This document shows positions 3,657 through 27,116 of a stretch of DNA of 38,735 nt, in pieces. The DNA is from Acidobacteriota bacterium. Its GTDB lineage: Bacteria > Acidobacteriota > Terriglobia > Acidiferrales > UBA7541. A program made the translations under genes and the position numbers. The notes beneath the pieces were generated by a model, which worked only from the letters and a program-made list of their open reading frames with translations, did not search any database and was not told the DNA's origin. The stretch covers positions 1 through 38,735 of the forward strand of contig QHYH01000138.1 in the NCBI GenBank assembly GCA_003223215.1, written 5' to 3'. Each line of letters opens with the position of its first letter. Within the stretch, counting starts at the first letter, position 1.

Positions 3657-5900
3657 CTAAGGCCGCCAGGAGTACGTGTACTTTATGGCGAAACGGTTCT
3701 GAGTGTATTGGGCGGGATTTGCGGCTACAAGGCTGGCGAATTGTTGGCCGACGGTGTAGATCACGAACAGATCGCTGTCTGGGCGGTAGTTCCATCGAAG
3801 GCGGATGTTGGCACTAGCAGCCTGAGTGTTCGACGTGTTCATCTGGAGAATCGCCGATAAAGTCAGAAAACGAGAGAATGCGTAATTGGTCTGAAGACTG
3901 CCAAACAAGACTGAGAAATCTCCTCCAGGAACAGATAGCCGAAAGCGATCCCACTGCTGAGAGAAATCGAAGGACAGTCTCTCGCTTGGTCGGTAGGAGG
4001 CCCGGATGCGGGCCTCATTCAAATGGCCGTTGTAGTAGGTACCAAAGCGCTCAAAGAACCGAAGGACCCAGCGGCGATCCTGGGCCGTTCCATACGTCAA
4101 TTGATGTCTCGTCCAGCGATACAAGCCGGGAGGAATAACGACGTTTTTGTAGATGTTAAACGGCGTCACGATTCGCTGAGCGAAAACATCCACGATGTCG
4201 TCATCGGTGTAGGCCCCACTATGGAATTCAGCGCGGAACGTAGTTTGCCATTCCTGGGTTTGCAGGACGCCGTGAGTGTCGGGGGCATGAAACATGAAAC
4301 CTTCGAAATTCAATTCGCGGATACCGCGAATCTTTGGTCGCGGTTTTAGCGTGAGATCAGCGTAGTCACAGACGCAGTCGGTGCGTTCGAGAAACCCAAC
4401 CTCGGGGTTGAAATTCGGACCGATCTTGCGGCGCTCGGCAAGAAATTCGAGCCAACTAGTCTTGTAATTTAGTCCAGCGCCCAGATTGGTCTGACCGCCA
4501 GTGACGAGGGGAGAGCGCGTCTGAGCGGCATAACCCGTCAAAACAAGGCTCTTCATCAGCACGATCCGCGTGTCGACTCCTCCACTCTGGTTAAACGGAG
4601 GAGCTGTGTTGCCCGCGCGCTTGTCGATGCCCATGAATCCCACATAGGAGCCTCCGGGCAATGAGCGCTTCAACCGGAACACCGCGTAATTCGCGTAAGG
4701 ATTCGGACCGCTCGAGCGGGTACTCGCGTCCATGATGCCCACATCAAATCCGGCGAGAGAGCCAGTGATCTTTCCTCCTCCATTCATTGGAACTTGCTGT
4801 CCAGTGACCGGATCAATCCCAATCTGGCGGCTGAAAAACAGCAAATCGCCGGAGCCGCCCATTGCAAAGTTGAAGATGCCGGCGTTTTCGAGGAAGAACT
4901 GTCGCTTTTCAGGAAAGAAAAGCTTGTAGGGCGTCAAATTGAACTGCTGCGTGTCAACGTCGGCATCTGCAAAATCAGTGTTTGCACTCAAATTGGCAAC
5001 CAAATTCGAGCGGAGGCCGAGTTTAACGTCCAGGCCTCCTGTATAAAGGGCCTCCGTACCGGGTGTCAGCCCTGCCGAGGTTGCGGCCGGTGGCAAATGG
5101 TTGAAGCCAGTCAAGCCGTAGGGTTTCACGATGAACAAACGGCCGCTGCCAATCTCAGAGATTCCATGCAACTCGCCGGCCTGGCTGATCTTGTTCGCAC
5201 CAAAAGACCTGCGCCACGCGGACCACAGATCTTGCTCGTTCTTTCGACGAATGAAGCGCTTGAAGTTGATCCCCCACACTACTTCGTTCGTCTGCATGAA
5301 GTTTAGTGTCGAAAAAGGAATCGCAACGGTGGCGGTCCAGCCCCGCGAAGTTATGCGCGCCTCGGAAATCCAAACACCATCCCAACCTGAGTCGCCTTCG
5401 CTGCCGTCATCTTGGGGAGGCTGTTCGTCGGTAATTAAAGCATCGCGCTGCGTGCCGAGTGGATTGAATTGAAAAACGTAAGCGTTGCGTCGGTTGTGCG
5501 AAGAATCGATCACAATCTCAAAGTAGTCGTCGAGTTCCTGACTGATATCGCGGCGGAGTTGCGTGGCGACAATTTTCTCTGGCTCCGAATCAAAACAAGC
5601 GATTCCGAAGTAGATTTCGCCTTTCGTATAGAGGAGGCGCACCTCGGTGCGCTCCGAGGGCGGCTGTCCTTCGTAGGGCTCTCGCTGCGCGAAGTTGGTA
5701 ATGGGCTCGGCTAATTTCCAGAGCGGATCGTCGAGAGTCCCATCGATTTTTGGTGCGTGATCCACGCGTATCGCATTCGCAACGCGCGCCGTTTGCTGGA
5801 TTATTGCCGTCTCAGATTGCCCTGAAACAGTCCCAGCCCACCCTAAGGCTGACAGCAATGCGTAGGCAAGTTTGTGGGTTTGTAGCACGCTGCTCCGCAC
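3657..5900 (-). CDS. DUF5916 outer-membrane protein with CBM9-like N-terminal domain
   Basis: About 747 residues. A signal peptide (KLAYALLSALGWAGTVSGQ) precedes a carbohydrate-binding family 9-like domain (about 45-230: APKIDGTLDDPLWKLAEP, VRLLYTKGEIYFGIACFDSE). A long DUF5916 region follows, predicted as an outer-membrane beta-barrel (LFFPEKRQFFLENAGIFNF, many amphipathic strands, C-terminal YTYSWRP). The open frame reaches upstream to 6269, but that part is antisense-like and overlaps propeller D. GTG at 5900, 13 nt after propeller D's stop, is taken as start; GTG at 5888 is also possible, with GGAG 4 nt upstream. It is the last gene of the 12-gene cluster. Exact function unknown; a role in outer-membrane binding or uptake is inferred. 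Confidence 0.88.
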   Translation of the reverse strand: MRSSVLQTHKLAYALLSALGWAGTVSGQSETAIIQQTARVANAIRVDHAPKIDGTLDDPLWKLAEPITNFAQREPYEGQPPSERTEVRLLYTKGEIYFGIACFDSEPEKIVATQLRRDISQELDDYFEIVIDSSHNRRNAYVFQFNPLGTQRDALITDEQPPQDDGSEGDSGWDGVWISEARITSRGWTATVAIPFSTLNFMQTNEVVWGINFKRFIRRKNEQDLWSAWRRSFGANKISQAGELHGISEIGSGRLFIVKPYGLTGFNHLPPAATSAGLTPGTEALYTGGLDVKLGLRSNLVANLSANTDFADADVDTQQFNLTPYKLFFPEKRQFFLENAGIFNFAMGGSGDLLFFSRQIGIDPVTGQQVPMNGGGKITGSLAGFDVGIMDASTRSSGPNPYANYAVFRLKRSLPGGSYVGFMGIDKRAGNTAPPFNQSGGVDTRIVLMKSLVLTGYAAQTRSPLVTGGQTNLGAGLNYKTSWLEFLAERRKIGPNFNPEVGFLERTDCVCDYADLTLKPRPKIRGIRELNFEGFMFHAPDTHGVLQTQEWQTTFRAEFHSGAYTDDDIVDVFAQRIVTPFNIYKNVVIPPGLYRWTRHQLTYGTAQDRRWVLRFFERFGTYYNGHLNEARIRASYRPSERLSFDFSQQWDRFRLSVPGGDFSVLFGSLQTNYAFSRFLTLSAILQMNTSNTQAASANIRLRWNYRPDSDLFVIYTVGQQFASLVAANPAQYTQNRFAIKYTYSWRP

Positions 5901-5913
5901 CGGTCGTTTATCT

Positions 5914-6936: not shown

Positions 6937-6976
6937 GTCGCCCCCAACGCGAACTGCGTAAGCGATTTCGCAAGGT

Positions 6977-9900
6977 TCACCAAATCCACTTCAAAGCAAA
7001 CTGAATCTGCCGCGACGGAGTCTGAGTTGACGTTATCAACCCCGCGTTGCCAATGGGATTCCCGGTAGAGTCAAAAATGTTCCGGTTGTCAAGGGGAGGC
7101 GCGAAGTTCGTATGATTGATCACGTTGAAGAACTCGGCTCGAAACTGGATGTTGAAGGTGTCGGAGATGCGCTTAATCCGATTGTTTTTGAATACGGACG
7201 AATCGAGGTTTATCAGCCCAGGCCCAATCAGCGTGTTGCGTCCTAGATTTCCGCGAAGCGTGATTGGATTGGGGACACTGAAGCACTCCGTCTTGATATA
7301 GTGATTTGGATTTCCGGGATTTATGGGGGAGGAGCAGCCGGGGGCAGAAAGTAGGTTAGGCACATCAATGTTTGGATCGATACTCTTCACGCCAAGCGTG
7401 TCTCCGCCAAATCCCGGCGTAAACGGAACACCGCTGCTCGCTTCGAACACTCCTCCGACCTGCCACCCACTTACTGTCCACGCCAGGGCGCCTCGTGCCC
7501 ATTTCGGCGTGCTGAGTTCCCAGGTGTAGCTGACTTCCAGATTGTGAGCAACGTTGAAGTCCGCGAGACCTCGATTCAAATTCTGTACAAACCACAGCGG
7601 GCTAGAGATAGAATTGGAGTACTCGTCCCCCACCAGACTTCCGGACGAAGTGTCGATGGTCTTACCCCAAGTATAAGAGCCTTCGAGCTCCCCGCGGCCG
7701 ATTTTGGCCTTTAGCTTGACCTGCAGTGCGTCGTAAAACGAGTTGCCCTGCCAGAGTCCAGCCGTAATGCGCCCGGCATTCAAGTTTAACCTTGTGCCAC
7801 TGCCAACCGGAGACGGCCAGAGATAACCCTGCGGCGTGAGTGATGGTAGAACGATGTCCGCATCTTCCACACGGAAGGGTTGGTGTACGCCCCGCGAGCC
7901 GACATATCCAATTCTGAGGCTGACCTCGGAAGTCAGATCGTGCTCAACGGTTAGGTTCCACTGCATTACATAGTTTCGTTTCGGATGAGGGTCAAAGTAT
8001 CCTTGCCGGAAACTGCTTGTCGAAGCCGCAGCAATGGCGAAGGATCCCGTTGGAAAGGAACCTGCCGGAAGATTCGTCACACTGGCGTGTTGATCGAATG
8101 GTGCTGAAAACAATTCATTGAATTGAATCAAATAAGGAAGGGGCAGTACGTCAAACACACCAAAGCCAGCACTCAGAATAGTCTTACCGTCGCGAAATGG
8201 ATTCAGCGAGAATCCCACACGAGGTTCGAAGTTTCGCAGGGTGGGATTGAAAAATAGTGGATCGCCTAGGTGTGGGGTAGCGGCAGTGAGGCTTCGGAGC
8301 ACGGTGAGATGCCCGTGTACCTCCGTAGGGACAGTCGCGGTTTCATAACGCAACCCCAGATTGATCGTCAGGTTCGGCCGGAAGCGCCAGTCGTCCTGAA
8401 CATACCCTCCTACGACCGTCTGGCGAAATCCGCGCTCAGAAATAGCGCTGGGAATCGCCGCACTCAGTGAGAAAGGTGCGTTGGTCAGAAAGTCGGAAAG
8501 TAAGTTGAACGAGAATTCACCGCCCGGGTCAGAGACCGCCAGTATGTTGTCCCGCATTCGCTCCAGATTTGCGCCGAACTTGACCGAATGAGCCCCCTTC
8601 GTTCGGGCGATATCGTCGCCGGCTTGGATTGAAGTCCAGTGAAAACTGAAATTTGAAGGTGTCCCCAGTCCCCCCGAAAAGAAGGTAAGCCCTGGCACAA
8701 TGATCGCGGGTGCGTTCTTGCCCGGGACCGCGCCAAAGGAAGGGTCGGCTACATGCGAGTTTCCGCTCGGAAAATTGAGACCGGTTATAGCCACCACGCG
8801 ATTCACACCGAAGCGAAACGAATTGCGTAGCTGTGCGCTGAAGGTGTGCGTTTCATGTACCGCGGCGAACTGTCGCTGCGAGTCATAGCCTGTACGTTTG
8901 TCATTCAGTTCGTCCGGCTGTCTCACGTTTCCCTTGTCAAACATATACGTGCCGGAAAGCGCGTCCTGCTCCGAAAACTTGTGGTCCACCTTGGTCGTAA
9001 AATAGTTCTCCGGCGTTACCGTCTGCCCTGCAAATGTGAATACTCCCGTATCGCCCGCCCCAAGTAGCGGCCCATTCGGCAGCGGATAGAAAGCGTTCAG
9101 GAAGGTCTGAACCGTTGCGTCAGGCGTAACTCTCCCAGTAGAAAGGTTTCCCGCGCGCGCTGCTGCGGAAGGGACTGTCGCTACCTGCGTCAGCCCCTGT
9201 GACTGACGCAACCCCTCGTAGTCACCGAAGACGAAGGTGTGCTCCTGCCATATCGGGCCGCCCGCCGATGCTCCAAATTGATTTCGATGAAGAGCTGGCT
9301 TCACATTATCGAAGAAATTCCGCGCATCGAAGGCGCTGTTGCGAATGTACTCGAATGCGCTCCCGTGAAAGCTGTTGGTTCCTGAACGTGTGGAAGCACC
9401 AATGATGCCGCCGGAGGATCGGCCATATTGTGCGGGATAGTTGCTGGTGAGAACGGAGAATTGCTCAACGGCGTCCGATCCCAGGCTGACACCCAGCGCG
9501 CTAGCCGGTGGACCGTTTGAGTAGTCATTCACACTGATTCCGTCGAGTTGCGCATCGTTTTGGCGTGGGCGGCCTCCCGAGATTGTCATTTGTGTTCCAA
9601 AGCCCCGTTGAGCCTGCCCTGTGGATTGCGTGCGCGCAGTGGCTACTCCAGGTTCAAGTGCAGCCAGGTCTGAGGCAGAACGCCCATTCAGAGGTAAGTC
9701 GGTGACGCTTTTTGAAGTCACGACCCCGCTGAGGCCCGATGTGCGACTTTTGTCTGCGCCCGAACCGCTTTCGGTATGCATCAGGATGTCCGCTCGGCTG
9801 TCCTTCCCGGCGGTCATCGTCACATTTGTTCGCGCGTCGGCAAAGCCCGGCGCTGAAACCGTGATCTCGAAGATTCCTGCTGGAAGGCTCGACACGCTGA

Positions 9901-10171
9901 ATGAGCCGTCGTCCTTCGTTGCGACAATCTTGGTGTCACCGTTCCCCATGTTTTTGATGGCGACACGAGCATTCGCAATACGAGCGCCATCAGTGCTGGT
10001 TATTCTCCCGGAAAGGGTTCCCGCGGTGACTTGGGCTCGCAACTGAGCGGGAGCAAAGACGCAAATGATGAGAGCTAGGAGCGCTACGAAATGATGGCGT
10101 TCTATATTTTGATTTGCATCGAAAAGCACAGACGCCGCTAAGAAGAAGGTGTTCTTCATTGCTTTGAACAT
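6977..10171 (-). CDS. Oar-like TonB-dependent receptor with carboxypeptidase-regulatory domain
   Basis: 1064 residues. An unusual 27-residue polar N-terminus precedes the hydrophobic signal core (HFVALLALIICVFAPAQLRAQ). A carboxypeptidase regulatory-like beta-sandwich covers about 50-130 (GTLSGRITSTDGARIANARV, FSVSSLPAGIFEITVSAPGF). The plug follows (about 155-265: VTDLPLNGRSASDLAALEPG, QLDGISVNDY), then a large barrel ending RQIQFALKWIW with a terminal aromatic. GGAGAGGAA directly precedes the ATG; an in-frame ATG four codons later would remove part of the long leader. Such receptors import substrates across the outer membrane using TonB energy, or act in protein secretion (Oar). Its position between propellers C and D suggests they share a ligand. 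Confidence 0.92.
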   Translation of the reverse strand: MFKAMKNTFFLAASVLFDANQNIERHHFVALLALIICVFAPAQLRAQVTAGTLSGRITSTDGARIANARVAIKNMGNGDTKIVATKDDGSFSVSSLPAGIFEITVSAPGFADARTNVTMTAGKDSRADILMHTESGSGADKSRTSGLSGVVTSKSVTDLPLNGRSASDLAALEPGVATARTQSTGQAQRGFGTQMTISGGRPRQNDAQLDGISVNDYSNGPPASALGVSLGSDAVEQFSVLTSNYPAQYGRSSGGIIGASTRSGTNSFHGSAFEYIRNSAFDARNFFDNVKPALHRNQFGASAGGPIWQEHTFVFGDYEGLRQSQGLTQVATVPSAAARAGNLSTGRVTPDATVQTFLNAFYPLPNGPLLGAGDTGVFTFAGQTVTPENYFTTKVDHKFSEQDALSGTYMFDKGNVRQPDELNDKRTGYDSQRQFAAVHETHTFSAQLRNSFRFGVNRVVAITGLNFPSGNSHVADPSFGAVPGKNAPAIIVPGLTFFSGGLGTPSNFSFHWTSIQAGDDIARTKGAHSVKFGANLERMRDNILAVSDPGGEFSFNLLSDFLTNAPFSLSAAIPSAISERGFRQTVVGGYVQDDWRFRPNLTINLGLRYETATVPTEVHGHLTVLRSLTAATPHLGDPLFFNPTLRNFEPRVGFSLNPFRDGKTILSAGFGVFDVLPLPYLIQFNELFSAPFDQHASVTNLPAGSFPTGSFAIAAASTSSFRQGYFDPHPKRNYVMQWNLTVEHDLTSEVSLRIGYVGSRGVHQPFRVEDADIVLPSLTPQGYLWPSPVGSGTRLNLNAGRITAGLWQGNSFYDALQVKLKAKIGRGELEGSYTWGKTIDTSSGSLVGDEYSNSISSPLWFVQNLNRGLADFNVAHNLEVSYTWELSTPKWARGALAWTVSGWQVGGVFEASSGVPFTPGFGGDTLGVKSIDPNIDVPNLLSAPGCSSPINPGNPNHYIKTECFSVPNPITLRGNLGRNTLIGPGLINLDSSVFKNNRIKRISDTFNIQFRAEFFNVINHTNFAPPLDNRNIFDSTGNPIGNAGLITSTQTPSRQIQFALKWIW

Positions 10172-10204
10172 TTCCTCTCCGAAAACTACCCCTCGCTAGA
10201 TGGA

Positions 10205-11179
10205 TTACTGACCCACTTCAAAAACCTGGATCATTGCTGGCGTCGAGCCTTGCTGTCTGACCGCAAGATATAGCCGACCCAATTCTGCAGAGAAGAAATT
10301 TGTGCGCGCCCCCTTAACTGTAGCGAGTCGGGTGATCTCTTTGTAGTGATCGGCGTCCTGCTGCTCAAAAACGGAAATGGCGCCTTCTCCTCCGGAGGCG
10401 TAGATGCGTTTGCGCGACTGATCGTAGAAAACATCGTCGCAATCACCCACTGCCGAAAGCGTTTGAACTATTTTTCCACTCCCCGTATCTATCGCTAGCA
10501 GTCGCGCCGGAAGACGAGTGACCACGAATAGCCGGTGATTTGCTTCGTCCAGTGCCATCGCGTAGTTGTTGAGTGACATTCCGGTGCCCCAAGTTGTCAG
10601 GACTGTCCCTGTCTCTCGGTTCAAAACGGCAATTTTTCTTGATTTGGGCAGGTTCACATAGATTCGAGGACTATTCTTTTCGAGTTGGAACGATTCGGGA
10701 TGTGAATCCAGTTTAATTTCGCCGATCTTCTTGCCTTCGATGTCTAGCTCCCCCAACCCCCCACTCCCGTATCCGACATAAACCCGTTGGCGAGCAGCAT
10801 CGTATCGAAGGTTATCGGCATCGTCGCCGTAATCAACGGTCTTGAGAAGCTTCAAGGAAGTGCCTTCAAATATCTTCACGGTCCCATCTTTTGAACTGGC
10901 GATATAGAGGCGGTCATTGCTCGCGACATAGAGCGCACCCTGCGGTTCTCCGAGCCCAGAGATTGTGTTGGTGCGTTTTCCTGCCTTGAGGTCGATGACT
11001 TCGAGCGTATTATTGCCTAGCGCAGAAACGAACAATCGCTGCCCCTTCACATCCATTGACATGTGGTCGATGCGTCCCTGCACGTCTGGCAGTTCGATTT
11101 CTTTCTCTAATTTGAGGGGATCAGTCGATTGAGCTCCCACCAAGGTTGCTGAGAAGAGCAGCAATGTAACCAGTCGCAT
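10205..11179 (-). CDS. Secreted YncE-type beta-propeller protein (propeller C)
   Basis: 324 residues; a short signal peptide (MRLVTLLLFSATLVGAQ) is followed by blade repeats (RLFVSALGNNTLEVIDL, RLYIASSKDGTVKIF, LRYDAARQRVYVGYG, HRLFVVTRLPARLLAIDTG). AAAGGA lies 6 nt before the ATG. It begins 14 nt after propeller B's stop and ends 33 nt before the receptor start. It shares the GGEGxISVF and DADHY block with propeller D, indicating duplication inside the cluster. There is no catalytic signature of a lactonase or quinoprotein; a binding or scaffold role is inferred. Confidence 0.9.
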   Translation of the reverse strand: MRLVTLLLFSATLVGAQSTDPLKLEKEIELPDVQGRIDHMSMDVKGQRLFVSALGNNTLEVIDLKAGKRTNTISGLGEPQGALYVASNDRLYIASSKDGTVKIFEGTSLKLLKTVDYGDDADNLRYDAARQRVYVGYGSGGLGELDIEGKKIGEIKLDSHPESFQLEKNSPRIYVNLPKSRKIAVLNRETGTVLTTWGTGMSLNNYAMALDEANHRLFVVTRLPARLLAIDTGSGKIVQTLSAVGDCDDVFYDQSRKRIYASGGEGAISVFEQQDADHYKEITRLATVKGARTNFFSAELGRLYLAVRQQGSTPAMIQVFEVGQ

Positions 11180-11193
11180 TTGTGATCCTTTCC

Positions 11194-12246
11194 TCAGGGA
11201 TTGCTCGGAGCTGCTGTAACAGGCTCATAGACCATCATGCGCGCTACGGGCTGGCCATGCTCCTGTTGCTCCGGCGCGTATACCCGATGAGTTGCCGAAT
11301 CCACCGCAAGGCTGTGAACCATTTTCTCTACGGCGAAATCCTCAAGCTTTCGATAGTGGTCCGCATCTTGTGCCTGAAACACAGAAATAAATCCACTGGA
11401 ACAAGCGACATAGATTCGGCCCAAGCCGGGATCAAATTTCACAACGTCGGCGCCTGCCGGCATTGGAAGGTGCGCGATCGATTTGTGAGTGTCTAGACCA
11501 AAGACCGTAAACGTTCGATTCCCACTGCAGAGGATGAATGCACGATGATGTTCCGAATCAACGGCCATGCCATGATTGAATTGGCAGCCATCCACGGGAT
11601 ATTTCCCCAACAACGTGTCTGTTGCCGGATTGATCTCCGCGATTTCATTTGTGTTTCGGAGATTTACGTAGACCTTGCGTGCCGATGAATCATATTGCGG
11701 CATGCCCGTTTCGCTGGGGAATTCTATAGTCTTGACAATCTCATCTTTGTCGACGTCCACGACCGCCACTGCCTTCCCCAAAGTATTCGAGACATAAACC
11801 TTGTGAAAAGGAGCGGCATACGTGCTCCCGTTGGGCTTGGCCGCGGTTGCCAAGCGCTTGACTACTGCCATCGAATGCAGATCGACAATACCGATCTTCT
11901 CTTCGCCCCAATCGGATGTGTAAACCTTACGCGTTTCAGGAACGAATTCGAGGCCAGTGATACCGGGAACGCCGGGAATCGCTTTGACCACCTTGTTTGT
12001 CTTCATGTCGATCACGTACAGAATCCCTGGACCCAAATGAGCCGAAAGCAGAAATTGATCCTCATCGTCTGTGGTCAGATAGTCGAAGCGCTGGCCTTTG
12101 GGACCGGGGAGATCAATCGTCGCAATCTGCTTGAGGGTTTGGCCGGGCAAAGAGGCCGCCAAGACCAGAATTGCGACAAGAGACCTTCGCACGGTGCTCA
12201 TCGCCGTGTCCGAAAGTGCGACCCGCGAATGATCATGTCCAGCCAT
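11194..12246 (-). CDS. Secreted YncE-type beta-propeller protein (propeller B)
   Basis: 350 residues. The ATG overlaps the MFS stop codon as TAATG, implying translational coupling; an in-frame ATG at residue 16 precedes the real hydrophobic signal (RRSLVAILVLAASLPGQ). Blade repeats include KVYTSDWGEEKIGIVDL, KVYVSNTLGKAVAVVDVD and RIYVACSSGFISVF. It is a close paralogue of propeller A: shared RFDYLT, APFHKxYVS, DKDEIVKT, SETGMPQYD, NHGMAxDSEHHRAF and DADHYRKLEDF. The conserved NHG, HH and Cys positions could bind a metal, but this is inference. The N-terminal extension MAGHDHSRVALSDTA is absent from paralogues. Confidence 0.9.
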   Translation of the reverse strand: MAGHDHSRVALSDTAMSTVRRSLVAILVLAASLPGQTLKQIATIDLPGPKGQRFDYLTTDDEDQFLLSAHLGPGILYVIDMKTNKVVKAIPGVPGITGLEFVPETRKVYTSDWGEEKIGIVDLHSMAVVKRLATAAKPNGSTYAAPFHKVYVSNTLGKAVAVVDVDKDEIVKTIEFPSETGMPQYDSSARKVYVNLRNTNEIAEINPATDTLLGKYPVDGCQFNHGMAVDSEHHRAFILCSGNRTFTVFGLDTHKSIAHLPMPAGADVVKFDPGLGRIYVACSSGFISVFQAQDADHYRKLEDFAVEKMVHSLAVDSATHRVYAPEQQEHGQPVARMMVYEPVTAAPSNP

Positions 12247-13523: not shown

Positions 13524-13563
13524 CGGAAGCCTTCTTCCTCTCCTCCCAAGTCGCGCACAGCAA

Positions 13564-14601
13564 TTAGCGATCTCCAACTGCCTCGTAGACGACCATCCGC
13601 GCGACCGGCTTGCCATCCACTTCCTGTTCCGGTGTGTATAGCCGATGCGTTTTCTGGTCCACGGCTACCGTGTGTACCGCGTGCTGGACTCGAAAGTCTT
13701 CGAGCTTGCGGTAATGATCCGCGTCGTCCTCATGAAAAACGGAGATGGCACCGCTGTAGCACGCGACGTAGATGCGCTGAAGCCCAGGATCGAACTTGAT
13801 GACATCCGGTCCGCCTGCCAGCGGCAGAAACGCAATGGGGACGTTCTTGTCCAGATCGAAGACGGTCATCAGTTCGTTTCCCTCACAGGAAAGGAACGCG
13901 CGGTGGTGCTCCGAGTCAAGCGCCATGCCGTGATTTCCCTTGCATTTCCCGACCGGGTACCGGCCTACAACTTCGTCGGTCGCGGGATCAATGACAGCAA
14001 AAATGTTCTGGTCCTGGAGGTTCACGTAGACCTTCCGCGCCACGGGATCGTATTGCGGCATCCCCGTTTCGCTGTCAAAGTGCAGAGTCTTCACGATCTC
14101 GTCTTTGTTTACATCGACGATTGCTTCGGCTTTCCCTCGCTCATCCGAAACGTACAGTTTGTGAAAGGGAGCAGCGTAAGCACTCCCGTCCGGCTTCGAT
14201 TCTGTTTTCAGTTTCTTGATGACCTTCATCTGCTTGAGGTCCACCACGCCAATCGTGTTGTCATGGGCGTTCGAGGTATAGAACTTCTTCAGTTCCGGAA
14301 CGTACTCGACACCTTCGGCTCCGGGCGTATCCGTAACAGTTGCGACCACCCTGTTTGTGGCTAGGTCGATCACGTATGTCTGATCGGCGGCGAGATGCGC
14401 GGAGATCAGATAGTGGTCGTCCGTATCAATCGTGAGATAGTCGAACCGTTTCCCGACCGGACCAGGCAGATCGAACTCTGCTATTTTCTTGAGAGTAGGG
14501 CCGCTCGATTGAACGGCCCCCGCGGGCGCGAGCATCGGAGCGAGTGTTAGAGCCACGACCACGGCACCGCCCAGCTTTAAGTGTGTTCTGGTCATTTCCA
14601 T
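13564..14601 (-). CDS. Secreted YncE-type beta-propeller protein (propeller A)
   Basis: 345 residues; the signal region TRTHLKLGGAVVVALTLAPM is followed by a Pro/Ala/Gly linker and propeller blades (KFYTSNAHDNTIGVVDLKQM, KLYVSDERGKAEAIVDVN, RIYVACYSGAISVF). ATG lies 3 nt after the DUF1259 stop, with GTAGGAAATGG before it; the in-frame ATG two codons on (MTRTHL) is an alternative. The NHGMALDSEHHRAFLSCEGN block holds clustered His and Cys also present in propeller B. It is paralogous to B, with 40 nt to the MFS start. Confidence 0.9.
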   Translation of the reverse strand: MEMTRTHLKLGGAVVVALTLAPMLAPAGAVQSSGPTLKKIAEFDLPGPVGKRFDYLTIDTDDHYLISAHLAADQTYVIDLATNRVVATVTDTPGAEGVEYVPELKKFYTSNAHDNTIGVVDLKQMKVIKKLKTESKPDGSAYAAPFHKLYVSDERGKAEAIVDVNKDEIVKTLHFDSETGMPQYDPVARKVYVNLQDQNIFAVIDPATDEVVGRYPVGKCKGNHGMALDSEHHRAFLSCEGNELMTVFDLDKNVPIAFLPLAGGPDVIKFDPGLQRIYVACYSGAISVFHEDDADHYRKLEDFRVQHAVHTVAVDQKTHRLYTPEQEVDGKPVARMVVYEAVGDR

Positions 14602-14604
14602 TTC

Positions 14605-15486
14605 CTACTTGATAGCGATGTGGCTCAGGGCGGCCTTGATTCCCGCCGCAACGGACGCCGTATTGTCATTAGCCCAGAAGTGCATAAAGAAAAGGCGAGG
14701 CTGCTCCGTAAGCATGTGACTGTGCAGCGCCGTTACGGAAATATGGTGTACCTCCAACGCTGAAATGACCGGATTGACCTCCTCAGCTGTCAGTACAAAA
14801 TCGCCGGTCGTAGCGACTTTGCCGGCCTCCGTCTCCTGAAAATTGATCGACTCCGCTACCCCTTGTGGCGAAGCGAGTGTCATATTGCCCTCCGTAATGG
14901 CCTCAGAACGCGCCAAGCCAAAGGAAAGCACGCCACCTCTGAGAGTGCCCTGCCGCCCGATCGTGTCGTTCACGGTCTTGACCCATTCTGGAGGAGTGGC
15001 GGGCTCAGGTGCCGGCGCCGCGGGTTTCTCAAGAGGTGTCTTTGAAACCGCGAGAGCGGCACGCAAAGAACCCGCAATCTGAGGCGCGCTACCGTGCCCC
15101 ATGTAATGCATGTACATCACGTGCGGCGTCTCACCGAGTAGGTGATTGTGTACAGCAGTGATTTCGAAACCAGCGGAGCGCAGCTTCTCCATGACCGGAT
15201 TGACTTCGGAGTCGAGCAGCACTAGGTCTCCCATCACCGTGGCGTTCTCGTCCGTTCCCGAAAAAGCGGCCCACGATCCCAAAGCTAAGCCCGCTTTAAC
15301 TGACACTCCTTGTACGCTCACATGCAAGTCAGTCCGAGGGAAACCCACTCTATAGACTTCTCCGGCCTTCTGGCCTGAACGGCCGAGAGCCTGGTCAATG
15401 GCCGAAGTGTTGAGCCCTTGGCTTCTCGCGGCGAGCGGAACAAACAGAACACCCGCGAGAACCAAACAACGTACTCCTCCAATCAT
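14605..15486 (-). CDS. Exported protein with two DUF1259 (LppY/LpqO-type) domains
   Basis: About 293 residues. ATG at 15486 is chosen over 15498 because GGAGG sits 5 nt upstream of it. The signal peptide (VRCLVLAGVLFVPLAARSQG) is followed by two tandem DUF1259 copies, about 20-135 and 160-290, joined by a Pro/Ala/Glu linker (KPAAPAPEPATPPE). Copy 1 has the His-rich block VHNHLLGETPHVMYMHYMGH; copy 2 keeps only part (LHSHMLTEQPRLFFMHFW), having lost several His. DUF1259/LppY-LpqO proteins are exported and uncharacterised biochemically; the His cluster looks like a metal site. It lies 49 nt after the RND adaptor and 3 nt before propeller A. Confidence 0.9.
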   Translation of the reverse strand: MIGGVRCLVLAGVLFVPLAARSQGLNTSAIDQALGRSGQKAGEVYRVGFPRTDLHVSVQGVSVKAGLALGSWAAFSGTDENATVMGDLVLLDSEVNPVMEKLRSAGFEITAVHNHLLGETPHVMYMHYMGHGSAPQIAGSLRAALAVSKTPLEKPAAPAPEPATPPEWVKTVNDTIGRQGTLRGGVLSFGLARSEAITEGNMTLASPQGVAESINFQETEAGKVATTGDFVLTAEEVNPVISALEVHHISVTALHSHMLTEQPRLFFMHFWANDNTASVAAGIKAALSHIAIK

Positions 15487-15535
15487 GACTGCCTCCATTT
15501 AGAAATAGCGAGATTCAAATACGCGGCTGGTAAGG

Positions 15536-16723
15536 TCATTTCAACGGGCGCTGCTGCTCGGCTGCCGCCACTTGCGCGTTCACTCGTGTACCTGGGCGCA
15601 GTTCATCGGTTCCCCGCACAGCGACTTCATCTCCTTCATGCACGTCACCAAAAACCTCGGTCAGCTTTCCATCCACTTCCCCAGTGCTGACGTTGACCCA
15701 TTCTGAATTGCCATTGCGAATGCGAACAACAAAAGTGGCTTCCGTCGTTCGCGCGACTGCCGAAGTCGGGACAAAAAGCGTTGGCTCAGTGCGACGAACC
15801 AGCCAAAGGACTTCGGGAAACATCCCGGAACTCAAACGCCCGTCCGAATTGTTGACGTCTAGTTCGACCGGCATGGTCCGCGTTTTCACGTCCACGGAAT
15901 GAGCAACACGGGCAATCGTTCCCGCGAATTTCTGACTGGGGAACGCAGGGACGCTGAACTCAACCTTGCTTCCGACGTCGATGCCCGTCGCATATTTCTC
16001 TGGGACAGGAACAACGAGCCGGAGCCTGGCGGTCTTTTCGACCCGTAGCATTGGCATGCCCGCTCCCGAGCTACTTGTTGCAGGCCCCACGAGAGATCCC
16101 GGATGTACGTTCCGTTCCGTCACAATGCCGTCGAGAGGAGCCCGCACTTGGAGGTACCCTTCGATTTCTATGACCGACTTTAGTGCCGATTTCGCCGCTT
16201 CCGCGCTCTCGCGGAGCGCTTGGAGTCGCGCACGGTCTGCTTCGGCGCCCTTCTGGGCGATCTCCAAATCATTTCCAGCAACTACTCCGGGGGTAGCAGA
16301 GGCGCTCTTCAAGCGTTCGTAGGTGCTCTGGTTGGAGGCGAGCTTGGCTTCCGCCTCAGCACGCTGCGCCTCGGCGGCCTGGAGTTTGGACTGTGCTTCA
16401 GCTCGCTGTGCCGCGACTTCTGGCGCAACTAGCCGGGCCATCAGCTGTCCAGCCTTCACGCGCGACCCGCGATCCACGCTGATCGAATCAACATAAGCCG
16501 TTACTTTTGGAAAAACGGCCACAGCCTCGTATGCCTGAAGTTCTCCTGGTAACCGCGTCGCTATGGACAGTTTCTTTGACGTAACCTTAGCCACTTCGAC
16601 GGTTGGTGTAGGCGACGCCGTTCCCTGAGCACTGGTGCTGGAGCCCGAATTCGTGCCGCAAGAAGCGCAAAAGCTGAGTGTCGTACAAAGGATTAGAATC
16701 AACGGAATCCGGGCTTGCGTCAT
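15536..16723 (-). CDS. RND efflux periplasmic adaptor (membrane-fusion protein)
   Basis: 395 residues. A lipoprotein-type leader ([17 protein letters not shown]) suggests anchoring at Cys22. A Ser/Thr-rich linker is followed by the lipoyl/barrel-sandwich halves ([40 protein letters not shown]) that bracket an Ala/Glu/Lys-rich coiled-coil hairpin (about 105-185). The beta-barrel and membrane-proximal domains follow ([34 protein letters not shown]). It joins the inner-membrane pump to the TolC-type channel. The ATG overlaps the pump stop as ATGA, with GGAGGA 5 nt upstream inside the pump gene, so translation is coupled. Confidence 0.93.
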
Positions 16724-19700
16724 GCCGCTCCTCCGGGCAGTGGGTTTGAATTTCTCGCGAAGGCACTAGCGGGATCATCGGGATCAAGCGATGGCGACTT
16801 GACGCTGGCGCGTTCTTGCACCAAGGAAAACACAAGCGGAACAACGAGAAGTGTAGCAGCTGTAGCAAACAACAAGCCTCCAATGACCGCACGCCCAAGA
16901 GGAGCCGTCTGCTGACTTCCCTCCCCGATGCCCAGAGCCATGGGAACCATTCCAGCAATCATCGCCATGCTGGTCATCAAAATGGGTCTCATACGCGTTC
17001 TCGCTCCATGAATCGCAGCAGCAGTGGAGGTATTTCCTTGCCGACGATATTCCTCCGCAAATGTGACCAACAAAATCGCGTTCGCCACGGCGACGCCGAT
17101 GGCCATAATTGCTCCCATGAACGACTGAATGTTTAGACTCGTGCGAGTAACCAGCAGAACGAAAAGCACTCCACAGATGACCGCAGGGATGGCCGACAGC
17201 ACCACAAACGCGAGCCTGAGTGATTGGAAGTTCGCCGCCAGCAGCAGGTAGATCACAAGAACCGCAAGCAGCAACCCGACGGCAAGGTTGGTCAACGTCT
17301 GCTTCATTGGACCGATTTGCCCTCGGACAGCGACCTTCACTCCGCGAGGCGTAGACCCTGCGCGACTAATCGCGGCGTCCAGCTCGCTCGAAACACGGCC
17401 CAGATCTTCTCCCGAAACATTCGCCGTGAGCGTCACCATTCTCTGTCCGTTCAGCCGATGATACTCGCCAATGACAGTTCCGTAGCCAACTTGGGCCACG
17501 TCTCCCATTAGCGGATGCTCAGCAGCTCCTTGCGTCACCGGGATATGTTCTACGTCTTGAATCGAGGTCACATCGGATTGAGGAACCTGGACCTGCACTT
17601 GATATGCGACTCCCGACTTTGGATCAGCCCAATAGTTCGGCGCGACGAAACGGCTAGAGGACGTGGCCGCAAGGAATGATCGCCCAACACTCCCGGTTGT
17701 AACCCCCAGTTGTCCGGCGCGTTCCCGGTCTACGGTGATGTCTATGCTCGGATAATCGAGAGGTTCGTCATACTGAAGGTCGCGGAGCGCGCGAATCTTG
17801 GCTACTTCCGTGCGAACCTTCGCGGCAAAGGCTCGATTGGCACCGAGGTCAGGCCCGGTCACATTGATTTCCACGGGCGTCGGAGCCCCGAAGTTCATGA
17901 TCTGCGTCACGATGTCTCCAGCTTCAAAAGAAAACTGGCAGCCCGGAAATTTGTCAGGCAAGAGCTTCCGCAACCGTTCCTCGAATTCGTCCATGCGAAT
18001 GTTGGAGTCCGGCTTCAAGGCCACACGCAATACCGCCTCATGCTGACCGCTAGTCCAAAGGTAGATCGTGTTAATGGGATAGTTCGGAGGTGGCGCGCCA
18101 ACGTAGCTCAATGTCACACCGACATTGCCGGGACCGGCCGCTTCCTGAATGGAGTGGAGCACACCAAGCGTGAGTCTTTCCGTGGTTTCCACACGTGTCC
18201 CGATGGGCGCTCGGAACCGCAACAATAGCTGACCGGAGGAGACCCGCGGGAAGATCTCTCTTCCGAGATACGGGCCGAGTAGGACAACCACCAAAATTGA
18301 AGCGAGAACGTAGGCCGAGACCGTAAGTCCCCGTATTGCTGTGAGCCGGTTCAGAACGCGGCCGAGCGTGTTCCGCACTCGGTGGAGCACCGAAGGCGCA
18401 TCCTCTGCTTCCGGTGCATGCTCGCGCAGAATCCACGTTGACAGCACGGGCACAAGAGAACTCGACAACAAGTAAGAGGCGGCCATCGCAAAACCGACCG
18501 CCAGTGAAAGCGGCACGAAGAGCGCGCGCGAGACTCCTGTCATGAAGAACGAAGGAACAAACACCGCGAGAATGCAGAGCATGGCCAGCAGCCGCGGAAT
18601 CTGCACTTCCTTGCTTGCATCCAAAACGGCTATCGCTCTTCCGCGTCCTTGTCCGAGGTGACTGTGAATGTTCTCCATCACCACCGTCGATTCGTCGACG
18701 AGAATCCCGACAGCCAGTGCCAAGCCGCCCAGGGTCATTATGTTGATGGTGTGACCCGCGCCCCACAGGGCTACCACGGCTGTTAGCAGCGCGAATGGAA
18801 TCGTAGTGACAACGATGAACGCGCTCCTCCAGTCGCGAAGGAAGAGCAACACCATCACGCCCGTCAAGATCGCGCCTAAGAGTCCTTCCTTCACGACAGA
18901 TAGCAGAGAGTTCCGAACGTAGGGGGATTGGTCGAATTCATAATCGATCTTGATGTCTTCTGGAACGACGGACTGGAATTGCGCGAGGCTAGCATTGACC
19001 GCATTGACTACACTCAACGTCGAAGCATCGGCGCGCTTCGTCACGGGAATATAAACCGTGCGGCGTCCATTCACTTCGGCATAGCCAGTGATGATGTCGC
19101 TCGAATCCTCTATCGTCCCGACGTCTCTCAAAAAGACTGTCGGTCCGGCTCCCGTGCGGATCGGAAGATTTTGCAAGTCTTTGATATTCGATACGACGGA
19201 ATTGATCGGTGCCAGCCGCAGCAAATCTCCAGTCCGCACATTTCCCGCCGGTACAATCGTGTTCCCCGTGTTCAGCGCCTGGATCACTTCGTCCGGGGCC
19301 ATTCGGTAGGCGCGGAGACGATCCGGGTCGACGCTCACGACAATCGTTCGCGCCGCCCCTCCGAATGGAGGAGGAGCGGAGACTCCGGGCAGAGTTGCGA
19401 AAAGTGGGCGCACGCGGTTTAGCGCCAGGTCTTGGATCTCGGCGACGCTCTTCGTTGTGCTCGAAAAAACCAAGTAGCCGACCGGGACGCTCCCCGCGTC
19501 AAAGCGCATGATAAATGGCGCGACCGTTCCAGGAGGCATGAACGCACGCGCCCGGTCCACGTATCCCACGGTTTGCGCCATGGCCTGGCTCATGTCCGTG
19601 CCTGGATGAAACGTCAGTTTCAACAATCCCACGTTTTGGATGGACTTTGATTCCACTGACTCAATCCCCGTGATGTAGAGGAAGTGATACTCGTAGTAGT

Positions 19701-19893
19701 AAACGAGATAGCCTTCCATCTGCGCTGGCGACATCCCCCCGTATGGCTGTGCTACGTAAATCACCGGCAGATTCAGGTTTGGGAAAATATCAATCGGCAT
19801 GCGCGTGAGGGCGAGAACCGAGCACAAAGCGACGCCAATTACGATGACGACGATGGAGATTGGATTGCGCAGTGCAGCGCGAAGAAGCCACAT
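16720..19893 (-). CDS. RND efflux pump, inner-membrane permease
   Basis: 1057 residues, the normal length for AcrB/CusA-type pumps. TM1 at about 12-30 is followed by a large periplasmic loop, TM2-6 at about 335-490, a second loop and TM8-12 from about 865. The proton-relay region in TM4 reads [17 protein letters not shown] (about 396-412): Asp400-Glu401 replaces the usual Asp-Asp of HAE1 pumps, a variant seen in other Acidobacteria/Bacteroidetes-type permeases. No CusA-like methionine substrate ladder is obvious, so metal versus organic substrate is undecided. AAGGAG, embedded in the end of the TolC-like gene, lies 10 nt before the ATG. Gap to the upstream gene is 2 nt. Confidence 0.94.
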
Positions 19894-19895
19894 GG

Positions 19896-21329
19896 CTATG
19901 GCGCTCCTTGTGTTTTGTCATGGAGTGACTGCAGGAAAGGCGCTAGGTCGCCTTGGGCGGCGGCAACTGAAGCGAGATTCTGCCAAACAGCCAGCCGCGC
20001 CAGAGCGTCGTCAATCTCCGCTTGCACGAGAAAACTTTGCGCGTCGGAAACGTCAACGAGAGTCGCGAGCCCGGCTTGATAACGAGCGCGCTCCTGGGTT
20101 TCCGTTGTACGCGCAGCTTCGAGTTCGAGAGGCGTGTTTTCTGCGACTTTTCTGGCGCCATCGAGTGAGGCTTGCGCTTTGTGTAGTTGTCCTGTCAGGT
20201 CTTGCAACGCCTGGTCGTAGCGCGCCTTCTCTGCGCGTTCGTTCGCCGCTTCCACAGCCTTTTTAGACTTGATTGAAAAGATGTCGAATACTGGGAATGT
20301 CACCATCAGCCCGGCTGCCCAGTTCGCGCGATCCGGCCCCAAACCCTCCGTACCTCCGAGAAAATTGCCCGTCGGGTCAACACCACTTCCACGTCCCATG
20401 ACCACCGATTGCAGATACAGCTTCGGGTAATACGAGCGATCGAGCGCGTGGACGAGCGACTGCGACTCTTGGACGCGCGCGCGCTGAACTTCCGCAGCTG
20501 GATTCGCGGAGATAGCGGTTGGTGGTGGAGCAGCCGCGGGTGGCGTGCCCAGCAAAGTGCTTTCCCGAACCTCCACTGCCACATCGGCAATGCCGAGAAT
20601 ATCCGCGAGTTGCGCGCGGCTTGTTGCTTCCTGCTGCTGCGCCCTCGCAAGATTAACTCGCGCGCGGGCAAGCTCCGCATCCGCCCTGGATCCGTCTGCA
20701 CCCGCACGAAGTTGATTGTCAACAAGGACGTGCACGGACTTCGTGAAGGTTTCTCGGCGCTCGACATCCGCCTCGGCGGCACGGACGGTCTTTTCCGCCG
20801 CCAGGAGCGCTAGGTACGCGTTCACCGTGGCAATGCCGACATCCAGCCGTGTCAGGGACGTTTCCACCGACGCGCGGTTTTGAACTGCGCGCGCCGCGTC
20901 CACCCTCGCCCCGCGATACCCGAAGTCGAGTGGCTCCCAGGAAAACAACAATCCACCCGCGCTCCCCCAGGCGCTGCGGTTCGACGTCGCCAGAGGGACC
21001 GGCCCGGTAATCGGTGCAATTACGGAGTTCGGTAGGGTGAGCCCGGTAATATTGTTGTCCGTGGCTCTATTCGACTGCCACAGAACATCGGTCCGAGGCA
21101 GGTAGCTCGTTCGCGCTACAGTTACACCGGCCTCCGCCGAGCGGAGACGTTCGAGCGAAACGCGCACTGCCGGGTAGTTCTTAAGCGCAAAATCCACCGC
21201 TTCTTCGAGCGTAAACACTCTTGTCTTTTGCTGGTCCGATTGCGCTGATGCGGGCACGCTCGCGGCCAGCATCAAAATCACGCTTATCCCCGTTTTCCAA
21301 TACGCCCGATGATTTGCAAACACGTCCAT
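19896..21329 (-). CDS. TolC-family outer-membrane efflux channel
   Basis: About 477 residues. ATG at 21329 has GAGGGAG just upstream and is preferred to a TTG four codons earlier. The signal peptide ([17 protein letters not shown]) precedes two tandem OEP repeats: [20 protein letters not shown] opens repeat 1, and a second set of long Ala/Glu/Arg heptad helices begins at about 265. Conserved [15 protein letters not shown] near the C-terminus matches the family ([16 protein letters not shown]). It forms the trimeric outer-membrane duct of the tripartite pump encoded by the next two genes. It lies 13 nt after the ChrB-like gene. Confidence 0.92.
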
Positions 21330-21342
21330 CTGCTCCCTCAAT

Positions 21343-22278
21343 TCACTTCTGTGGTGCGTGGTAGAGCCCTTCGATGAGTTCTATCCCGCGCTCCAGCAGT
21401 TTGTCGTCCGAGATTCTTTGACGCGCCCAGCCTTTCAATATCTGATCCACGCCGTAACCCTCCTTGCGGCCAAACCGGTCATCCGCGAGATCTGCGTCGT
21501 GAATCATTTGCCCGATCACAGCAACCTTCGGGTCGCGGACGTGAAACTGTTTTGTGAGGGTTTCAAACGTGCAGTCATCGCCGCGATGTCCGAACCCTTC
21601 TTCATGAAACATGTCGAATGGCACGCCGCTAGCCGGCACACGGTCCTCCGGTGCAAAAGCAAACCGTGCTTTGGGGTCGATAAAGTTTCGGATCAGCCAA
21701 GCAGACGCACAGCGATCGACTCCCGGCCTTGGTCTAGTGACCCAGAGCCTGCCCTTGTAGTCCTTCGTGTTGACCTTGCTGATGGGGGCGGCGGACGCTG
21801 GCCCGCGCAATGAGGCCGCGTGCTCTAGTAACTCCTTGACGCGCACTTGCAGGGGACTGTTGAAGAAGTCGACCTCGACAATCTCTTGAAAGCGATTTCG
21901 CAACCGGCCGAGACGCCCACTAGTCTTTCCTTCCACACCTTTCGATGAAAATGCTTGAAGCTCCCGAATCAATTCCTGATATTCCCGCGTGCGCGCTTCC
22001 GAGAAGCGGCCGATCAGTTGAGCCTTTGAGAGGTTGTCGATCGATTCGACGTGAACCACGGATGCGTCGCCTCCGTATTTCCGAATCGCTGTCGCGAGCC
22101 ACTGAAATCTCTCTTCATTGTTGGGATTGTTAGGGAGTAGGTAGCCCGAATTTCCGAGCGGCACGGTTCCGTACCGCTGCAACTTTCGCCAAATCTCTAC
22201 TCTTTGGCTGGCCCGCTTTGTGGGCAGGGTGAAGGTCAGCAGCAGCCATCCATCCATCCGTCCGTTACGTACGGTCAT
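21343..22278 (-). CDS. chrB: ChrB-like chromate-resistance/regulatory protein
   Basis: 311 residues with both ChrB halves: an N-terminal region (about 10-110: WLLLTFTLPTKRASQRVEIW, YGTVPLGNSGYLLPN) and a C-terminal ChrB domain (about 175-305: RLWVTRPRPGVDRCASAWLI, FIDPKARFAF, HRGDDCTFETL, IHDADLADDRFG). In proteobacteria ChrB is a chromate-responsive regulator of chrBACF; the C-terminal domain resembles exported chromate-resistance proteins, but no signal peptide is seen here. His, Cys and Asp in VDRCASAW and HRGDDCTFE are candidate ligands. It is the first gene of the 12-gene cluster. There is no Shine-Dalgarno; the candidate promoter predicts an almost leaderless transcript. No chrA gene is present in the window. 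Confidence 0.85.
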   Translation of the reverse strand: MTVRNGRMDGWLLLTFTLPTKRASQRVEIWRKLQRYGTVPLGNSGYLLPNNPNNEERFQWLATAIRKYGGDASVVHVESIDNLSKAQLIGRFSEARTREYQELIRELQAFSSKGVEGKTSGRLGRLRNRFQEIVEVDFFNSPLQVRVKELLEHAASLRGPASAAPISKVNTKDYKGRLWVTRPRPGVDRCASAWLIRNFIDPKARFAFAPEDRVPASGVPFDMFHEEGFGHRGDDCTFETLTKQFHVRDPKVAVIGQMIHDADLADDRFGRKEGYGVDQILKGWARQRISDDKLLERGIELIEGLYHAPQK

Positions 22279-23835: not shown

Positions 23836-23842
23836 ACGAGAG

Positions 23843-27090: not shown

Positions 27091-27116
27091 GAAGCCTCCC
27101 ACCCCAAATCAGTCGT

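What the first reader, a model, noticed from the sequence alone, without database searches (positions are those of the whole stretch)
3657..22278. Twelve-gene envelope cluster: ChrB, tripartite RND pump, double DUF1259, four beta-propellers, MFS, TonB receptor, DUF5916
All genes are on one strand, intact, with gaps of 2-49 nt and two stop/start overlaps, so they are very likely one transcription unit. The combination supplies inner-membrane, periplasmic and outer-membrane steps plus several secreted binding-type proteins. ChrB and DUF1259 point to a metal or oxyanion, yet no ChrA is present. I know of no described pathway with this composition; the substrate is inference.
Basis: partly seen in the sequence, partly recalled or inferred. 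Interest (0 to 1): 0.78.

Follow-up and report, generated by a model that had tools for sequence, protein, structure and literature searches.

The report
ChrA-less chromate locus with efflux pump
This soil-bacterium gene cluster is a variant of the known bacterial chromate-resistance locus in which the usual chromate exporter is missing and a three-part cell-envelope pump sits directly behind the chromate-sensing regulator, an arrangement that recurs in related bacteria and has not been tested experimentally here.

Summary
In detail: twelve open minus-strand genes at 22278-3657, gaps of at most 40 nt with likely starts. DUF1259 is ChrL/ChrY, the A-type propellers match ChrK/ChrZ, and the MFS permease is 39% identical to ChrP of Cupriavidus metallidurans: described chromate-locus genes. 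ChrB keeps the three residues needed for chromate response.

What looks new: no ChrA was found in the whole 8.8-Mb genome, and a TolC-RND-adaptor pump follows chrB. In a sample of this class (299 genomes, 66 ChrB loci) 22 loci carry this pump, 11 carry ChrA, one both. ChrB genomes with the linked pump have ChrA in 6 of 21; other ChrB genomes in 25 of 34 (not corrected for kinship). Pump relatives without ChrB have a PadR gene upstream of tolC in 7 of 17 loci examined. A dyad overlapping the chrB promoter recurs in ChrA-type and pump-type loci.

Best reading: a ChrB-controlled, ChrA-less chromate locus in which ChrP and the pump may do the export. The assignment to chr genes is strong; the pump's substrate is inference, and an MFS is near only 8 of the 22 pumps. 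New variant of a known kind.

The parts
22288..22302 (-). candidate ChrB operator TTATAGACATAACAT (dyad GTTAT-N4-ATAAC) overlapping the -10 of a TTGACG-18-TAACAT promoter-like site
   Evidence: exact pattern 5 times in the 8.8-Mb genome, reversed control 2
21343..22278 (-). chrB: full-length ChrB (N + C domains), chromate-responsive regulator
   Evidence: Pfam ChrB_C 9e-37, ChrB_N 6e-14; chromate-response residues R182, R189, H231 kept (= O. tritici R180, R187, H229)
19896..21341 (-). TolC-type outer-membrane channel
   Evidence: Pfam OEP 8e-41
16720..19893 (-). RND permease; best NCBIfam model is multidrug RND_permease_2, then CusA/CzcA, both below their cut-offs
   Evidence: tree
15536..16723 (-). 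RND periplasmic adaptor
   Evidence: TIGR01730 2e-55 above cut-off
14605..15498 (-). chrL/chrY: double DUF1259 (LppY/LpqO) exported protein
   Evidence: PF07485 5e-82 with two repeats; 41% to pChr15 DUF1259/ChrL, 31% to CH34 ChrY
13564..14601 (-). ChrK/ChrZ-type propeller A1
   Evidence: 34% over 337 aa to CH34 ChrZ; 36% to pChr15 YncE/ChrK
12246..13523 (-). chrP-type MFS permease (start TTG 13523 likely)
   Evidence: 39% over 397 aa to CH34 ChrP, E 6e-72
11194..12246 (-). ChrK/ChrZ-type propeller A2 (62% to A1)
10205..11179 (-). propeller B1 (second subfamily, 26-28% to the A types)
6977..10171 (-). Oar-like TonB-dependent outer-membrane barrel with CarboxypepD_reg domain
   Evidence: PF25183 2.6e-173, PF13620 1e-17; not found at this place in L114, L115, L199
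5914..6936 (-). propeller B2 (43% to B1)
3657..5900 (-). DUF5916 / CBM9-like exported protein (GTG start 5900 likely)
   Evidence: PF19313 1e-13, PF06452 3e-6; in 17 of 66 ChrB loci and 0 of 30 comparison loci

Best explanation
The cluster is a chromate (chr) resistance locus of an acidobacterium without ChrA. ChrB at its head senses cytoplasmic chromate and controls the operon from the dyad overlapping its promoter (residues and dyad shown; control inferred). The ChrP-type MFS permease probably moves chromate, or a chromium species, out of the cytoplasm. The TolC-RND-adaptor pump, of a kind that stands under PadR in some relatives, carries it from the periplasm or inner membrane across the outer membrane. 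Exported ChrL and ChrK-type propellers act as periplasmic accessory factors of unknown biochemistry. The TonB-type barrel, propeller B2 and DUF5916 are envelope additions. Shown by sequence: gene identities, synteny, residues, dyad, no ChrA found. Inferred: transcription as one unit, chromate induction, and the substrates of MFS and RND.
For: ChrB, DUF1259, propeller and MFS match chr-locus genes of pMOL28 and pChr15. In FB24, constructs lacking chrK or chrL regions give lower Cr(VI) resistance and the genes are chromate-induced; chrP, chrY and chrZ are reported chromate-induced, without data. R180, R187 and H229 are kept in 40 of 40 long ChrB aligned, window included. No ChrA match in the own genome. 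Pump in 22 of 66 ChrB loci of the class sample, ChrB directly before tolC on its strand in 16 of 22; ChrA in 11, both in 1. ChrA present in 6 of 21 pump-linked ChrB genomes against 25 of 34 others (p 0.0019; 23 of 32 and p 0.004 without two weak ChrB fragments; within the genus 1 of 9 against 4 of 5, p 0.023, tallied by hand). The 8 nearest full-length RND relatives (85-92%) all lie within 2 kb of a ChrB. The dyad is within 1 mismatch in 14 of 39 chrB upstreams (14 of 32, 0.16 expected; 0 of 7 more), in ChrA-type and pump-type loci. MFS genes close to the window's are near a pump in 8 of 13 ChrB loci (p 0.023).
Against: No expression or phenotype data. ChrA x pump at locus level alone is weak (p 0.084 for all 66, 0.042 for 37 with full-length ChrB). 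ChrA x MFS (0 together, p 0.012) rests partly on 8 distant MFS found only by profile; with the 13 close ones p is 0.10. Only 8 of 22 pump loci have any MFS (no association overall, p 0.59), so MFS plus RND is not a fixed pair. MFS and ChrA stand together in CH34, and in L038, L092 and L270, so ChrP is not simply a ChrA substitute. In 3 of the 22 pump loci only tolC is on the contig. Twelve of 37 full-length ChrB loci have neither ChrA nor pump, some on short contigs. Genomes are related, so p values are optimistic. Chr-linked RNDs are not one clade (7 changes). A 95% RND fragment in G150 lies beside DUF1259 in a genome with no ChrB match. I know of no chromate-exporting RND pump. The CH34 chrB upstream lacks the dyad. 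No RND column separates ChrB-linked from unlinked pumps.
Confidence: 0.55

Rival explanations
1. It is a chromate-induced locus, but the RND pump does not export chromate. It exports a secondary product, such as organic or Cr(III) complexes or oxidised metabolites, and was recruited from a pump for toxic organics.
For: RND relatives without ChrB have a PadR gene upstream of tolC in 7 of 17 loci examined. The RND scores best with a multidrug model, below its cut-off. RND pumps draw from the periplasm or inner leaflet (established knowledge), which a cytoplasmic oxyanion does not reach without a first step; 14 of 22 pump loci show no MFS for that step.
Against: ChrA is depleted in pump-linked ChrB genomes, which suggests replacement of the export step rather than a mere addition.
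Confidence: 0.27
2. ChrB here senses something other than chromate (another oxyanion or redox stress), and the whole cluster handles that.
For: Composition is unusual; the CH34 genome paper itself suggests chr-locus variants may serve another metal-oxyanion (passage). In FB24 chrL also rose 12.5-fold with hydrogen peroxide in the table seen.
Against: The three chromate-response residues are kept, and the chromate reporter is described as very specific (passage); the FB24 paper reports little or no induction by lead and arsenate. But the residues are invariant in all 40, so they cannot discriminate.
Confidence: 0.1
3. Two or more neighbouring units: a ChrB-controlled pump, and a separate accessory or envelope unit (TBDR, propeller B2, DUF5916) with its own control.
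For: TBDR and propeller B2 were not found at the same place in L114, L115 and L199; several relatives show only ChrB-TolC-RND-MFP (L181, L192, L196, L197, L200; some cut by contig ends); one internal promoter-like site at 8023-7996.
Against: Gaps of at most 40 nt throughout; DUF1259, propeller, MFS and DUF5916 recur with the ChrB-pump block (L114, L115, L199, L202).
Confidence: 0.15

Closest known systems
chr locus of Cupriavidus metallidurans CH34 pMOL28 (chrIBACEFONPYZ)
   Same: chrB, chrP (MFS, 39%), chrY (DUF1259, 31%), chrZ (propeller, 34%); the same three accessory types are adjacent, in another order
   Different: CH34 has chrA, SOD (chrC), chrE, chrF; its chr block as annotated holds no RND pump, TBDR or DUF5916 (the neighbouring cnr RND genes are annotated as nickel); different chrB promoter palindrome
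Chromate resistance determinant of Arthrobacter FB24 / plasmid pChr15 (chrJ, chrK, chrL, chrA, chrB)
   Same: ChrB, ChrK propeller (pChr15 YncE 36% to A1), ChrL DUF1259 (pChr15 41%). FB24 proteins themselves were not compared.
   Different: Has ChrA and malate:quinone oxidoreductase; Gram-positive, no outer-membrane parts; in FB24 ChrB is split into N and C genes
TnOtChr of Ochrobactrum tritici (chrBACF)
   Same: ChrB regulator with R180/R187/H229; promoter dyad overlapping -10 (passages)
   Different: chrA, chrC, chrF follow chrB; no ChrL/ChrK/ChrP/pump named there; the dyad differs in detail (post-hoc resemblance TTATTGTAGTAACAT)
chr operons of Cupriavidus neocaledonicus STM 6070 near RND metal pumps (PMC7060636 passages)
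   Same: chrB1A1 lies upstream of an RND-HME system, and chrB2A2CF-cep-chrL lies in a cluster with RND systems: chr and RND genes as neighbours
   Different: Both keep chrA; the RND systems are described as separate metal (nickel, cobalt-zinc-cadmium type) operons
PadR-tolC-RND-adaptor operons of the same class (L205, L206, L209, L224, L227, L231, L232)
   Same: Homologous tolC-RND-adaptor in the same order
   Different: PadR (PF03551) upstream instead of ChrB; chr accessory genes not found in these stretches except a weak propeller in L231

Membership tests
Chromate resistance (chr) locus | ChrB regulator with chromate-response residues R180, R187, H229 | tested here: met
   window R182, R189, H231; 40 of 40 long ChrB (residues from PMC3817168 passages)
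Chromate resistance (chr) locus | ChrA (PF02417) chromate transporter | tested here: not met
   0 in the own genome, with the model ringing in 9 of 14 control genomes. So it is not filed as a classical chrBA operon, only as a ChrA-less variant.
Chromate resistance (chr) locus | Accessory chr genes ChrL/Y, ChrK/Z, ChrP | tested here: met
   pairwise homology and adjacency to chrB in pMOL28 and pChr15
Chromate resistance (chr) locus | Promoter dyad at chrB | tested here: inconclusive
   dyad at 22288-22302 recurs in the class (14 of 39 within 1 mismatch) but is not in CH34 or L272; binding untested
Chromate resistance (chr) locus | Chromate-inducible expression and resistance phenotype | not testable with these tools
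   -
HME-RND heavy-metal pumps (CzcA/CusA) | TIGR00914 above cut-off; DFG/DGA TM4 signature (signature recalled) | tested here: not met
   394.8 bits against a cut-off of 701; no DFG or DGA
HAE1-RND multidrug pumps | NF033617/TIGR00915 above cut-off; TM4 Asp-Asp and TM10 Lys (recalled) | tested here: not met
   514.7 of 1250 and 315.6 of 940 bits; TM4 reads [10 protein letters not shown], no DDA; TM10 reads AVANAILL by eye

The most novel reading that the evidence does not exclude
In this acidobacterial class a trans-envelope RND pump, under PadR in some of its relatives, has repeatedly come under the chromate sensor ChrB and, in some lineages with a ChrP-type MFS permease, replaced ChrA: a second, two-step way of exporting chromate out of the cell rather than into the periplasm.
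Probability: 0.3. Interest if true: 0.75.

Novelty: new variant of a known kind. Interest (0 to 1): 0.55.

Why it matters
ChrA is treated as the efflux pump of bacterial chromate resistance, and the accessory genes (ChrK, ChrL, ChrP) have no settled biochemical role in the passages seen. ChrA-less loci that keep these genes isolate their function and offer a testable case: either the accessory genes and an RND pump suffice for export, or ChrB regulons include protection without export. It also gives names to DUF1259, the A-type propellers and the MFS in soil acidobacteria.

Tried and rejected
Rejected: a wholly undescribed pathway (core genes are chr genes). Rejected: one single recruitment of the pump as shown (chr-linked RNDs need 7 changes on the tree, 6 forced by starred branches; some 'unlinked' rows are contig ends such as L208 and L215). 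Rejected: ChrP as an exclusive substitute for ChrA (CH34, L038, L092 and L270 have both).

Led nowhere: structure of DUF1259 (mean pLDDT 87.8): the best Foldseek matches (microcompartment shell proteins, E 3e-4) have TM 0.2 and rmsd 15; VIA best Z 7.2, in the range the tool calls uninformative. No PDB sequence match for DUF1259 at E up to 1; MFS only weakly NorA. RND columns that distinguish ChrB-linked pumps: none clean. The four other exact copies of the dyad pattern in the genome were not followed. Outside the class: 18 ChrB stretches from 16 genomes of a 199-genome phylum sample; ChrA in 10 of 18 (up to about 10 kb away), pump in 1 of 18 (L272, without ChrA and without the dyad).

Papers: seen as passages only: PMC2751784, PMC7060636, PMC3817168, PMC2864759. 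Searches: 22 and 75 and 101 returned nothing; two found the papers used; one (DUF1259) listed two, not opened; one listed five, not opened, one of which (PMC5033799, title and start of abstract only) reports an emrAB multidrug operon contributing to chromate resistance in Staphylococcus, a precedent for a multidrug-type pump; 46 and 95 listed reviews or unrelated genomes, not opened; 64 listed 15 of 19, of which PMC2864759 was then opened and PMC7060636 had been. A ChrB-RND operon without ChrA was not found by these searches; the library is open-access only and most listed papers were not opened.

Dropped or mixed rows: of 74 ChrB_C rows, three weak or broken fragments (G053, G024, second G170 piece) were left out and 5 merged into a neighbour's stretch, giving 66 loci; G053 and G024 still count in the 25 of 34. 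L185 was not counted as pump (other RND family). L182, L187 and L190 count as pump though only tolC is on the contig. Of 21 MFS loci, 8 are distant ones found by profile only or nearly so. L171 counts as full-length ChrB by ORF length although its N-terminus is not ChrB-like. Eight ChrB upstreams failed my start pattern; seven were scored later (0 within 1 mismatch, 4 with two, 3 with three), L171 left out; three plasmid rows were not in the dyad count. For the ten of 17 pump loci without a PadR call, neighbours were judged only by eye from their first residues, not by Pfam.
Full report
The window is G000:C3:1-38735 of an 8.8-Mb, 97.65%-complete genome. Two start codons need correcting (MFS, DUF5916).

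Identity of the core. DUF1259 (PF07485) is the LppY/LpqO family, called ChrL in Arthrobacter FB24 and ChrY in C. metallidurans. In passages of PMC2751784 chrK is a YVTN-propeller gene and chrL an LppY/LpqO gene of the FB24 chromate determinant; its genes are chromate-induced, and constructs lacking parts of it give lower resistance. In a passage of PMC2864759 chrP (an MFS permease), chrY and chrZ follow the CH34 chr operon and are chromate-induced (no data given there). I compared the proteins: window MFS to ChrP 39% over 397 aa, E 6e-72; propeller A1 to ChrZ 34% over 337 aa; DUF1259 to ChrY 31%, and 41% to the DUF1259 protein of pChr15. In pMOL28 the order after chrB, chrA, SOD, chrE and a ChrB-domain gene is two small genes, MFS, DUF1259, YncE-type propeller. 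The B-type propellers are a second subfamily, 26-30% to the A type.

ChrB. The regulator has both domains. R180, R187 and H229, without which the O. tritici ChrB does not respond to chromate (PMC3817168 passages), correspond to R182, R189 and H231 and are kept in 40 of 40 long ChrB sequences aligned. I matched the numbering by ungapped spacing of the motif RLWVTRPRPGVDR and the following H229 and H258, since the O. tritici protein itself was not at hand. The residues are invariant, so they argue that this is a normal ChrB but do not separate subtypes.

Promoter. The promoter-like site in front of the cluster (TTGACG-18-TAACAT, 22317-22288) overlaps the dyad TTATAGACATAACAT. Of 32 chrB upstreams, the window's included, 14 hold the pattern TTATNNNNNTAACAT with at most one mismatch, against 0.16 in dinucleotide shuffles; of seven more scored later none did, though four had two mismatches. 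The pattern was taken from the window. It is present in pump-type loci (L114, L115, L196, L197, L199, L201, L202) and in ChrA-bearing ones (L038, L055, L080, L203). A similar string stands in the O. tritici promoter, but this was seen after the fact, and CH34 has a different palindrome.

No ChrA. PF02417 finds nothing in the own genome, while it rings in 9 of 14 control genomes and in 133 of 299 genomes of the class sample. The genome's second ChrB locus, on a 4.1-kb contig, is DUF1259 - propeller - ChrB_C - MFS - DUF5916, with no ChrA on that contig (L137).

Neighbourhood survey. ChrB_C places in 299 sampled genomes of the class (55 genomes) were reduced to 66 stretches and annotated with profiles built here. 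DUF1259 occurs in 29 of 66, propellers in 24, MFS in 21 (13 close to the window's, 8 distant), DUF5916 in 17, ChrA in 11, and the pump in 22, of which 3 show only tolC before the contig ends. In 16 of the 22 ChrB stands directly before tolC on the same strand. For comparison, 30 stretches around RND relatives picked for lying away from ChrB (L205-L234) hold MFS 0, DUF5916 0, DUF1259 2, propellers 3 and ChrA 1; one of the two with DUF1259 (L214) looks like a fragment of such a cluster.

Replacement test. ChrA and pump meet in 1 of the 66 loci (L132), ChrA and MFS in none. Fisher p is 0.084 for ChrA x pump in all 66, 0.042 in the 37 with full-length ChrB, and 0.012 for ChrA x MFS, which weakens to 0.10 if only the 13 close MFS are counted. 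Outside this sample ChrA and MFS do stand together in L038 (an acidobacterial MAG), L092, L270 and CH34. Adding the 18 ChrB stretches from elsewhere in the phylum gives 0.009 for ChrA x pump. By genome, ChrA is present in 6 of 21 with a pump-linked ChrB (one of them a weak match) and in 25 of 34 with ChrB but no linked pump (p 0.0019); inside the genus 1 of 9 against 4 of 5 (p 0.023). I read these tallies by hand. They are not corrected for kinship, and many stretches end at contig ends. MFS and pump show no association when all 21 MFS are counted (8 of 22 pump loci, p 0.59), but do for the 13 close ones (8 of 13, p 0.023).

Origin of the pump. The eight closest full-length RND relatives (85-92% identity) all lie within 2 kb of a ChrB; a 95% fragment in G150 sits beside DUF1259 on a 3.2-kb contig of a genome without a ChrB match. 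On the tree, ten chr-linked rows including the window form one supported clade, but chr linkage over the whole family needs seven changes: repeated gain, loss or both. Of 17 unlinked loci in which I looked upstream of tolC, 7 have a PadR regulator there, confirmed by Pfam; in L231 it lies about 410 nt upstream. So related pumps stand under different regulators. The RND passes neither the HME nor the multidrug cut-offs, so its substrate cannot be read from sequence.

MFS. Close relatives of the MFS are rare: 28 places in 27 of 299 genomes at E up to 1e-65. Fifteen lie near ChrB or DUF1259 and one more beside propeller B2 and DUF5916 on a broken contig (L252). The twelve others were fetched; none shows ChrB, DUF1259 or ChrA, though L244 has a propeller and some contigs are short.

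How it most likely works. Chromate enters through sulfate uptake (established knowledge), is sensed by ChrB, and the operon is induced. ChrP moves chromate or a chromium species to the periplasm; the RND pump passes it outside; ChrL and the propellers assist in the periplasm. Each DUF1259 repeat has invariant histidines (H117, H119, H131; H259, H261, H273), which could bind metal; this is inference. Steps beyond gene identity, residues, promoter dyad and synteny are inferred.

Change on checking. On going back through the calls I found the L038 and L092 loci with both MFS and ChrA, and that an MFS is near only 8 of 22 pumps; the best explanation went from 0.60 to 0.55 and the novel reading from 0.35 to 0.30 for that reason.

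Verdict. The cluster is real and conserved. It is a ChrA-less, pump-bearing variant of the known chr locus, not an undescribed pathway. The interest lies in the recurrent coupling of ChrB to a trans-envelope pump and the depletion of ChrA where this happens.

Noticed in passing
22381-22971 (-): 196-aa protein with an N-terminal hydrophobic stretch and no Pfam family directly upstream of chrB; relatives stand upstream of ChrB in G166, G174, G106 (contig C35), and as fragments in G058 and G262. It may belong to the locus.
   Followed up: partly
23403-24023 (-): Remnant of an NhaA-type Na+/H+ antiporter: only profile positions 214-299 of 374 match.
   Followed up: no
24856-27102 (-): 748-aa protein combining a Fic domain and a DUF1488 domain.
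   Followed up: no
36287-36427 (+): Group II intron domain (RF02012, 54.6 bits).
   Followed up: no
L136 (G000:C80:114000-133900): Third DUF1259 gene of the genome (87% identical over residues 124-297) beside an A-type propeller, with no ChrB found in 20 kb.
   Followed up: no
L162, L172, L174 against L165: Within the genus the order ChrB_C-ChrL-ChrA-propeller-DUF5916 (L162, L172, L174) faces ChrB-ChrB_C-ChrL-propeller-MFS without ChrA (L165): a direct-looking swap of ChrA and MFS.
   Followed up: partly
14605-15498 (-): Histidines 117, 119, 131 and 259, 261, 273, the same set in each DUF1259 repeat, are invariant in all 27 aligned sequences: a candidate metal site in ChrL.
   Followed up: partly
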